From: an uncultured Bdellovibrio sp.
GTDB lineage: Bacteria; Bdellovibrionota; Bdellovibrionia; Bdellovibrionales; Bdellovibrionaceae
Length of the DNA stretch: 8,180 bases
NCBI GenBank assembly: GCA_946480995.1
Contig: CAMLMF010000095.1
Coordinates: 1-8,180 of the forward strand
Direction of reading: 5' to 3'
Part shown: one piece after another, positions 4,275-4,818 of the stretch
How the letters are laid out: each line of letters begins with the position of its first letter
Numbering within the stretch: position 1 is the first letter of the stretch
Notes under the pieces: generated by a model
The model's input: the letters and a program-made list of their open reading frames with translations, nothing else
The model's database searches: none
Told to the model about the DNA's origin: nothing
Position numbers and translations under genes: made by a program

Positions 4275-4296
4275 TTTCGATGCTTATATAACTGTC
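4275..4296 (+). promoter_or_regulatory. Predicted ArsR operator, copy 1 (upstream of arsR)
   Basis: This site fits the pattern TTTCGATNNTTAT, A or C, TAANNGTC exactly, as do two sites before the SDR gene. Here the variable positions are GC, A and CT. It lies about 60-80 nt upstream of the predicted arsR transcription start. It may act on a promoter I did not identify or work from a distance. Its right half overlaps the left arm of a longer inverted repeat (4290-4330). Confidence 0.65.
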
Positions 4297-4330
4297 TGAT
4301 TTTGCAGGGAAAGCCCCGATCTAGACAGTT
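4290..4330. repeat. Inverted repeat spanning the arsR promoter region
   Basis: AACTGTCT (4290-4297) is matched perfectly by AGACAGTT (4323-4330). GAT (4298-4300) and ATC (4319-4321) extend the stem past one bulged T, and GGG/CCC close an inner loop. The right arm contains most of the -35 box of the arsR promoter, so the structure may be regulatory DNA rather than RNA. Confidence 0.5.
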
Positions 4331-4350
4331 CCGGCAATTGCGTGTAAGAT
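4322..4350 (+). promoter_or_regulatory. Promoter of the arsR-type gene, predicting a leaderless mRNA
   Basis: TAGACA (4322-4327, five of six consensus bases) and TAAGAT (4345-4350) are 17 nt apart. Seven nt after the -10 box comes A4358, the first base of the ATG chosen for the repressor. There is no Shine-Dalgarno sequence before either possible ATG (4349 or 4358), which supports a transcript that starts at the initiation codon. Confidence 0.55.
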
Positions 4351-4357
4351 GCTATCT

Positions 4358-4657
4358 ATGACGACTTCAAAAACAGTCCGCTTAACGGATAAACAATTTG
4401 AACAGATTGGTAAAGCTTTAGCAGAGCCACGTCGTTATATGATTCTGAAACAAATCGGTTCTTGTAAGGGTGTAGCCCCTATGGCGTGCAGCGCTTTGCA
4501 AGAAGAGCACGATATCAGTGCCGCCACTTTGTCCCATCATATTAAAGAACTTGAGACCGCGGGCCTGGTCGAAATCATCCGCGAAGGCAAGTCGATGCGA
4601 CTGTCGGTTCAGCGCGATGTCTTACATGCTTATCTTGATAAGCTTGCTAAAATCTAA
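4358..4657 (+). CDS. ArsR-type winged-helix transcriptional regulator
   Basis: This 99-residue dimeric-type repressor has a compact winged helix: FEQIGKALAEPRRYMILKQI (14-33) forms the first helices. Residues 53-72 (ISAATLSHHIKELETAGLVE) are the recognition helix-turn-helix, and IIREGKSMRLSVQRD (73-87) is the wing. DVLHAYLDKL closes the fold. The family member is of the EPRRY...SAATLSHHIKELE kind often found beside SDR oxidoreductases. Two cysteines, Cys36 and Cys44, lie just before the DNA-binding helices and could sense metal or redox state, but that is inference; the classic ArsR ELCVCDL metal motif is absent. The ATG at 4358 is preferred to the in-frame ATG at 4349 because it coincides with the predicted transcription start. 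The SDR gene begins 205 nt downstream behind two predicted operators for this protein. Confidence 0.88.
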   Translation: MTTSKTVRLTDKQFEQIGKALAEPRRYMILKQIGSCKGVAPMACSALQEEHDISAATLSHHIKELETAGLVEIIREGKSMRLSVQRDVLHAYLDKLAKI

Positions 4658-4753
4658 TCCTTAGCTTTCCAAATATAATAATTTTGCCTGTGCTTTGGTG
4701 CCAAAACAGACGCCAAGTCGACCCTATTCTCCATTACGTCTATTTTTTCCTCA

Positions 4754-4775
4754 TTTCGATAATTATCTAATCGTC
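4754..4775 (+). promoter_or_regulatory. Predicted ArsR operator, copy 2 (upstream of the SDR -35 box)
   Basis: It matches TTTCGATNNTTAT, A or C, TAANNGTC with AA, C and TC at the variable places, and includes the perfect palindrome GATAATTATC (4758-4767). It ends 3 nt before the TTGACA box and lies 43 nt, about four helical turns, from copy 3, so two dimers could sit on one face of the DNA. Confidence 0.7.
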
Positions 4776-4778
4776 ATA

Positions 4779-4806
4779 TTGACAAGTTTTAAATCGTTTC
4801 GATACT
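4779..4806 (+). promoter_or_regulatory. Sigma-70 promoter of the SDR operon
   Basis: A perfect -35 box TTGACA (4779-4784) is followed after 16 nt by GATACT (4801-4806), four of six bases of the -10 consensus. Transcription would start near 4813. One predicted operator lies just upstream and another covers the -10 box, as expected for a repressed promoter. Confidence 0.65.
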
Positions 4807-4818
4807 TATCTAAGTGTC
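4797..4818 (+). promoter_or_regulatory. Predicted ArsR operator, copy 3 (over the SDR -10 box)
   Basis: It matches the same 22-nt pattern with AC, C and GT as variable bases, and it is the most symmetrical copy: TCGATACTTA (4799-4808) and TAAGTGTCGA (4811-4820) are inverted repeats with one mismatched pair around a 2-nt centre. Bound protein would cover the -10 box and the start point. Confidence 0.75.

What the first reader, a model, noticed from the sequence alone, without database searches (positions are those of the whole stretch)
4275..4818. Three exact copies of a 22-nt operator link the ArsR regulator to its own gene and to the SDR operon
The pattern TTTCGATNNTTAT, A or C, TAANNGTC occurs at 4275-4296, 4754-4775 and 4797-4818 with every fixed base conserved. 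The three positions are meaningful: before arsR, just upstream of the SDR -35 box and over its -10 box. The two SDR sites are 43 bp apart, about four helical turns. The last copy is a near-perfect palindrome. This predicts an autoregulated repressor of the SDR and small membrane protein, with DNA specificity that I cannot match to a described regulator.
Basis: partly seen in the sequence, partly recalled or inferred. Interest (0 to 1): 0.75.

Follow-up and report, generated by a model that had tools for sequence, protein, structure and literature searches.

The report
Conserved ArsR operator controlling a reductase
A small ArsR-type repressor gene and a neighbouring reductase gene share a short DNA switch that is conserved in distantly related bacteria, so the predicted control link is probably real, but it works like a standard bacterial repressor circuit.

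Summary
In detail: three sites at 4275, 4754 and 4797, 0 mismatches, 0.02 expected. They are not exact copies. The shared core is a 16-bp inverted repeat, TTMGAY-N4-RTCKAA, followed by NNRTC.

Orthologous loci support the link to the SDR (short-chain reductase) gene. Of 28 arsR loci examined, 26 have a target; 25 of these carry the core (at most 1 mismatch) within 300 nt upstream, 0.35 expected. In 66 Bdellovibrionaceae genomes the flanked motif is exact in 9 of 9 with this arsR and 0 of 57 without. In two genomes a nitroreductase gene replaces the SDR and keeps two operators.

Autoregulation is weakly supported: the site before arsR is degenerate, lies upstream of the best promoter, and occurs in 3 of 10 Bdellovibrionaceae loci.

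Most likely this is a local ArsR/SmtB repressor with one or two operators on the target promoter. One cysteine is invariant (120 of 120 homologues listed) and sits where RexT has its redox cysteine, so thiol sensing is a fair guess. The core alone is not specific: other ArsR modules carry it. New member of a known kind.

The parts
4275..4296 (+). Site 1, upstream of arsR (core 4276-4291, degenerate: ATATAA instead of ATCTAA); possible auxiliary operator
   Evidence: a like site at nearly the same distance from the arsR promoter in L057 (G001) and L058 (G002), none seen upstream in the other 7 Bdellovibrionaceae arsR loci
4322..4350 (+). Best arsR promoter: TAGACA-17-TAAGAT, 7 nt before the ATG (leaderless-like transcript)
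   Evidence: (9 of 12 matches, a weak consensus hit); similar -35/-10 pairs just before the ATG are visible in the upstream regions printed
4358..4657 (+). arsR: 99-aa HTH_20/ArsR winged-helix regulator, invariant Cys44 at the first residue of helix 3
4754..4775 (+). Operator 2 (core 4755-4770), ends just before the SDR -35 box
   Evidence: a corresponding first site in all 10 Bdellovibrionaceae loci
4779..4806 (+). SDR promoter: TTGACA-16-GATACT
   Evidence: 10 of 12 matches, consensus match only
4797..4818 (+). Operator 3 (core 4798-4813, with extra half-site GTCGAA to 4821), covers the -10
4863..5612 (+). Target gene: 249-aa SDR oxidoreductase of glucose 1-dehydrogenase type by profile; real substrate unknown
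   Evidence: Pfam adh_short_C2 211.6 bits; NCBIfam NF005559 250.5 bits, cut-off 215; closest solved by sequence 4mow
5646..5843 (+). Small ORF after the SDR, hydrophobic N-terminal segment, GTG start with AAAGGAGAGG upstream
   Evidence: Same start position and segment downstream of the SDR in window, L051, L052, L054, L058 and L055; not found in L053 and L057; no Pfam or NCBIfam match

Best explanation
A single-target ArsR/SmtB-family repressor module. An ArsR dimer binds the inverted repeat TTMGAY-N4-RTCKAA (with NNRTC on the downstream side) at two places on the SDR promoter, one abutting the -35 and one over the -10, and keeps RNA polymerase off. When its signal arrives the dimer lets go and the SDR, with the small downstream ORF, is transcribed. 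Shown by computation: the sites, their placement on a consensus promoter, their conservation with the target promoter, the rarity of the flanked form elsewhere, and co-inheritance with this arsR. Inferred: that ArsR is the binding protein, that binding represses, and that the signal acts through invariant Cys44 (oxidation, alkylation or persulfidation) as in RexT and CyeR. Autoregulation through site 1 is possible only in a minority of lineages.
For: Sites beyond chance. Core with at most 1 mismatch in 25 of 26 loci with a target within 300 nt, 0.35 expected (28 loci examined, 2 without target). The core pattern was fixed from the window and L001-L005; loci first seen later gave 5 of 5 (L051-L055), 4 of 4 (L061-L064, one with 1 mismatch) and 10 of 13 (L100-L112, two with 1 mismatch). 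Flanked motif, 0 mismatches: 9 of 9 arsR+ and 0 of 57 arsR- Bdellovibrionaceae genomes; at up to 1 mismatch 9 of 9 and 5 of 57 (the flank was written after seeing several of the arsR+ loci). In 28 genomes, 35 of 36 exact hits of a flanked pattern lie at the arsR locus (pattern tuned on these loci). A close SDR (E <= 1e-70) occurs in 7 of 66 Bdellovibrionaceae genomes, all arsR+, and (E <= 1e-75) in 12 of 96 genomes of one unnamed Pseudomonadota family, 11 of them arsR+. A different reductase (nitroreductase) carries the sites in G003 and G004. ArsR fold. Metal-inducible SmtB/ArsR operons are described as having one or two 12-2-12 repeats near or over the start site (PMC8790569, passages).
Against: No binding or expression data. 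No SDR with intact upstream DNA and without arsR was found, so the decisive control is missing (G970's SDR starts at a contig end). The core alone is not specific: 10, 11, 11 and 11 cores in G001-G004, of which 3, 2, 2 and 2 at the locus, with 2, 5, 6 and 11 for the reversed control pattern; and other ArsR modules in related genomes carry it. No core site at L102, L107 (followed by a different SDR) or L112, nor at the more distant Pseudomonas homologue L006, which has no SDR next to it. The signal is a guess: the second cysteine is present in 107 of 120 homologues and 16 of 28 loci.
Confidence: 0.78

Rival explanations
1. The sites belong to another regulator (for example a TetR- or a paralogous ArsR-type protein) and the neighbouring arsR is a bystander.
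For: The core TTAGATAATTATCTAA, identical to operators in orthologous loci, stands between a paralogous HTH_20 ArsR (30% identical) and an MFS transporter gene in G021, with a second core 58 bp further on; pairs of cores also lie upstream of two other ArsR-type modules in G002. Recalled, not tested: NemR-type TetR sites look like TAGAC-N4-GTCTA.
Against: The flanked motif is exact in 9 of 9 arsR+ and 0 of 57 arsR- genomes; it follows arsR even when the target is a nitroreductase; the paralogous modules have other flanks.
Confidence: 0.12
2. ArsR activates the SDR, or uses operator 2 as an activator site and operator 3 as a repressor site.
For: A first site lies just upstream of a TTGACA-like -35 in the Bdellovibrionaceae loci printed, a place compatible with activation; HlyU-type ArsR proteins are named activators (molecule names).
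Against: Operator 3 covers the -10, and the -35 is already the consensus TTGACA; Pseudomonadota loci carry one site only.
Confidence: 0.08
3. Three-operator looping circuit: site 1, 479 bp upstream of operator 2, bridges to the SDR promoter across arsR and also tunes arsR.
For: Site 1 recurs at nearly the same distance from the arsR promoter in G001 and G002.
Against: Not seen in 7 of 10 Bdellovibrionaceae loci; 479 bp is 45.6 turns; the two-site spacing differs between SDR and nitroreductase promoters; no tetramerising part is recognised in a 99-aa protein (inference).
Confidence: 0.1

Closest known systems
ArsR/SmtB repressors with 12-2-12 operators (SmtB, ZiaR, AzuR; PMC8790569, passages)
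   Same: Fold; an inverted repeat, one or two copies, near or over the target promoter; small local regulon
   Different: Different letters; no alpha5 DXHX10HXXE metal site and only one cysteine where alpha3 metal sites have two (sequence); below the NCBIfam metalloregulator cut-off, 49.7 against 55 bits
RexT (Nostoc) and CyeR (Corynebacterium), thiol-based ArsR sensors (PMC8960804, passages; the CyeR paper itself not seen)
   Same: Cysteine at the start of helix 3; no classical metal motifs; control of a redox enzyme gene; CyeR has a second cysteine seven residues away, here eight; RexT site ATTCG-N15-CGAAT resembles TTCG-N16-CGAA present in site 3
   Different: RexT's Arg61, Thr68 and Asn77 fall on Glu66, Ile73 and Leu82 here (offset taken from helices and strands; inferred); target is an SDR or a nitroreductase, not thioredoxin or old yellow enzyme
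SahR/SamR, ArsR-type regulators of the SAM cycle (PMC4239095, passages)
   Same: ArsR-type, long palindromic operators
   Different: Multi-gene methionine regulons; SamR and gammaproteobacterial SahR share ATC-10 nt-GAT; here one target, no methionine gene noticed next to it
Paralogous ArsR-MFS module in the same clade (L151; L048 looks alike)
   Same: HTH_20 regulator, two cores in the intergenic region
   Different: 30% identity, divergent MFS target, other flanks

Membership tests
ArsR/SmtB superfamily | winged helix-turn-helix with helices 1-5 and a two-strand wing; ArsR profile match | tested here: met
ArsR/SmtB metalloregulators | NCBIfam metalloregulator model NF033788 above its cut-off | tested here: not met
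   49.7 bits against 55
ArsR/SmtB metalloregulators | alpha3 ELCVCD-type or alpha5 DXHX10HXXE metal site (motifs as given in PMC8960804) | tested here: not met
   Read by eye from the sequence: MACSAL has one cysteine; RDVLHAYLDKLAKI lacks the motif
ArsR/SmtB repressor with operator on the target promoter | inverted repeat at or near the promoter, conserved with the regulator | tested here: met
ArsR/SmtB repressor | protein binds the operator and represses | not testable with these tools
   Needs EMSA/footprint and a mutant
Autoregulated repressor | operator on its own promoter | tested here: inconclusive
   Degenerate site upstream of the -35; such a site in 3 of 10 Bdellovibrionaceae loci
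RexT/CyeR thiol sensors | cysteine at the start of helix 3 | tested here: met
   Cys44 is the first helix-3 residue of the model, invariant 120 of 120 and 28 of 28; RexT helix 3 is 41-43 with Cys41
RexT/CyeR thiol sensors | conserved second (resolving) cysteine | tested here: inconclusive
   Cys36 in 107 of 120 homologues, 16 of 28 loci
RexT/CyeR thiol sensors | loss of DNA binding on oxidation | not testable with these tools
   No biochemical data

The most novel reading that the evidence does not exclude
An undescribed one-cysteine ArsR sensor of oxidants or electrophiles that travels between phyla as a cassette of regulator, operator and exchangeable NAD(P)H-reductase (SDR, or nitroreductase with OsmC), using an operator core shared with sister ArsR modules in the same genomes, so that flanking bases rather than the core keep the circuits apart.
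Probability: 0.3. Interest if true: 0.5.

Novelty: new member of a known kind. Interest (0 to 1): 0.36.

Why it matters
It gives a testable regulator-operator pair for a family of short ArsR proteins for which no close solved relative was found (best E 1.9e-07), present in predatory Bdellovibrionaceae and in Pseudomonadota. It would place a glucose-1-dehydrogenase-like SDR in a regulated, perhaps stress-linked, response, and the compact operator set is a convenient case for asking how sister repressors with nearly the same core avoid cross-talk.

Tried and rejected
Rejected: that the flanked motif is common at unrelated genes (35 of 36 exact hits lie at the arsR locus; the exception, G983:C167, lies between two convergent ORF ends). 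The bare core is not rare. At 1 mismatch, eight hits lie off the locus; I looked at two of them (G021, G957). Rejected: exact identity of the copies, and required four-turn phasing. Rejected: metal sensing by the classical sites.

Led nowhere: viral contigs (13 stretches, none a relative); plasmids (18 records, all under 60% identity); papers (nothing on this pair noticed in the listings; 0 papers with six versions of the core; 0 papers). The SDR-without-arsR control could not be made: none with usable upstream DNA. One search missed the window and L051-L059 because my search expression was too narrow; one search repeated it. One search's output was cut, so L058 rests.

Counts: one search used 28 arsR loci (window, L051-L064, L100-L112); L102 and L107 have no target in the fetched DNA by my expression and are outside the 26; L006 was left out and is reported apart. 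Bdellovibrionaceae loci number 10 with the window. The expected figure is the sum over loci of 200 first-order random sequences each.

Full report
Observation. The pattern is present three times without mismatch and is not expected by chance. The three 22-mers differ at their free positions. The conserved unit is an inverted repeat TTMGAY-N4-RTCKAA (4276-4291, 4755-4770, 4798-4813) with NNGTC downstream. Site 1 departs from the core at one base.

Anatomy. The best SDR promoter is TTGACA 4779-4784 with a -10 at 4801-4806, 10 of 12 matches (a consensus scan, 5 sites found against 1.6 in shuffles). Operator 2 ends just before the -35 and operator 3 covers the -10. The best arsR promoter is TAGACA-17-TAAGAT, 4322-4350, 9 of 12 matches, 7 nt before the ATG at 4358, so arsR looks leaderless. 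Site 1 ends 25 nt upstream of that -35, which is not a blocking position. ArsR is a 99-aa HTH_20 protein with a confident ArsR/SmtB-type model. The SDR is of glucose-1-dehydrogenase type by profile. The small ORF at 5646-5843 has the same start and hydrophobic segment in 6 of 8 Bdellovibrionaceae SDR loci.

Taxonomic setting. No whole genome is held for the window. The closest named ArsR relatives are Bdellovibrio and Bdellovibrionaceae. Such patchiness suggests horizontal spread (inference).

Phylogenetic footprint. After fixing the core pattern on the window and L001-L005, I examined 28 arsR loci. Two (L102, L107) have no target in the fetched DNA; L107 is followed by a different kind of SDR without a site. 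Of the other 26, 25 have a core with at most one mismatch within 300 nt upstream of the target start, against 0.35 expected; the miss is L112, which has only GTCTAACTGTCGAA there. All 10 Bdellovibrionaceae loci have two cores, 43 bp apart in the 8 SDR loci and 51 bp apart in the 2 nitroreductase loci; the 15 Pseudomonadota loci with a site have one. In L100, L108, L109 and L111 the SDR starts 931, 716, 433 and 446 nt after the arsR stop, and the site stays with the SDR. L006, a 46%-identical Pseudomonas homologue, has neither site nor SDR next to it.

Specificity. In the 66 Bdellovibrionaceae genomes the flanked motif TTMGAYNNTTRTCTAANNGTC is exact in 9 of 9 arsR+ genomes, always at the locus, and in 0 of 57 arsR- genomes; with one mismatch 5 of 57 arsR- genomes have hits. 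The flank was chosen after seeing several of the arsR+ loci, so the 9 of 9 is partly built in; the 0 of 57 is not. In 28 genomes (27 arsR+ and G970) a slightly wider flanked pattern, tuned on these loci, has 36 exact hits, 35 of them at the arsR locus; 21 of 28 genomes have an exact hit and 24 have one with up to one mismatch. The bare core is not specific: in G001-G004 it occurs 10-11 times, 2-3 of them at the locus, against 2-11 for the reversed control.

Target exchange. In G003 and G004 the same arsR is followed by a nitroreductase under two sites, and in G004 an OsmC-family gene follows (the profile tests were run on G004's proteins). G003's contig ends soon after the nitroreductase, so OsmC is shown for G004 only. 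Both kinds of target are redox enzymes.

Complication. The core is not private. In G021 an HTH_20 ArsR paralogue (30% identical) and a divergent MFS gene are separated by TTAGATAATTATCTAA and, 58 bp on, TTAGATAAACATCGAA; in G002 a similar module has cores 61 bp apart, and a further ArsR-type gene has a pair 43 bp apart upstream of its likely operon. None of these has the downstream NNGTC of our sites, so the flank may separate the circuits (inference).

Mechanism. Most likely ArsR dimers on operators 2 and 3 block the SDR promoter and a signal releases them. Cys44, the first residue of helix 3 in the model, is invariant in the 120 listed homologues and 28 of 28 loci and sits where RexT has its peroxidatic Cys41 (helix 3 residues 41-43; PMC8960804, passages). 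CyeR, known to me here only through that paper, has a second cysteine seven residues away; here Cys36 is eight away, in 107 of 120 homologues and 16 of 28 loci. RexT's Arg61, Thr68 and Asn77 do not appear to be conserved, so a RexT-like peroxide pocket is unlikely, and a thiol switch of another kind remains a guess. RexT binds ATTCG-N15-CGAAT; TTCG-N16-CGAA occurs in 1 of 10 first and 6 of 10 second Bdellovibrionaceae operators and in 6 of 15 Pseudomonadota ones. Two overlapping dyads are therefore possible, and only footprinting can choose.

Autoregulation. A site before arsR occurs in 3 of 10 Bdellovibrionaceae loci (window, G001, G002). Autoregulation is thus not a shared property, and looping is an unproven extra.

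Verdict. Not found in print, which cover open-licence papers only; there I saw listings, and passages of PMC8790569 alone.

Noticed in passing
window 6282-6626: tmRNA gene (Rfam RF00023, 172.5 bits) on the + strand, 0.67 kb downstream of the SDR.
   Followed up: no
window 4322-4360 and the orthologous loci: arsR appears leaderless: the -10 hexamer ends 7 nt before the ATG, and a similar closeness is visible in relatives.
   Followed up: partly
L151 1948-2021 (G021) and L048 1501-1577 (G002): A paralogous ArsR-MFS module carries two copies of the same operator core, one of them TTAGATAATTATCTAA; the MFS in L048 is judged by eye.
   Followed up: partly
L047 1501-1559 (G002): Two TTCGAT-N4-ATCGAA palindromes 43 bp apart upstream of a likely small operon that includes an ArsR-type gene.
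   Followed up: partly
L149 near 1937 and L150 near 1962: A different palindrome, GGTTAGATAGYCATCTAAC, in two genomes of one family, one copy between convergent ORF ends; possibly a terminator or another element.
   Followed up: no
G962 (L153 1087-2655) and G983 (L111): Tandem duplicated SDR genes behind one operator.
   Followed up: no
window 6901-7845 and 7953-8180: An AraC-type regulator divergent from an ORF whose start looks like an NAD(P)-binding protein by eye: another possible regulator-reductase pair.
   Followed up: no
window 523-1158: ThyX-type thymidylate synthase (Thy1, 156 bits).
   Followed up: no
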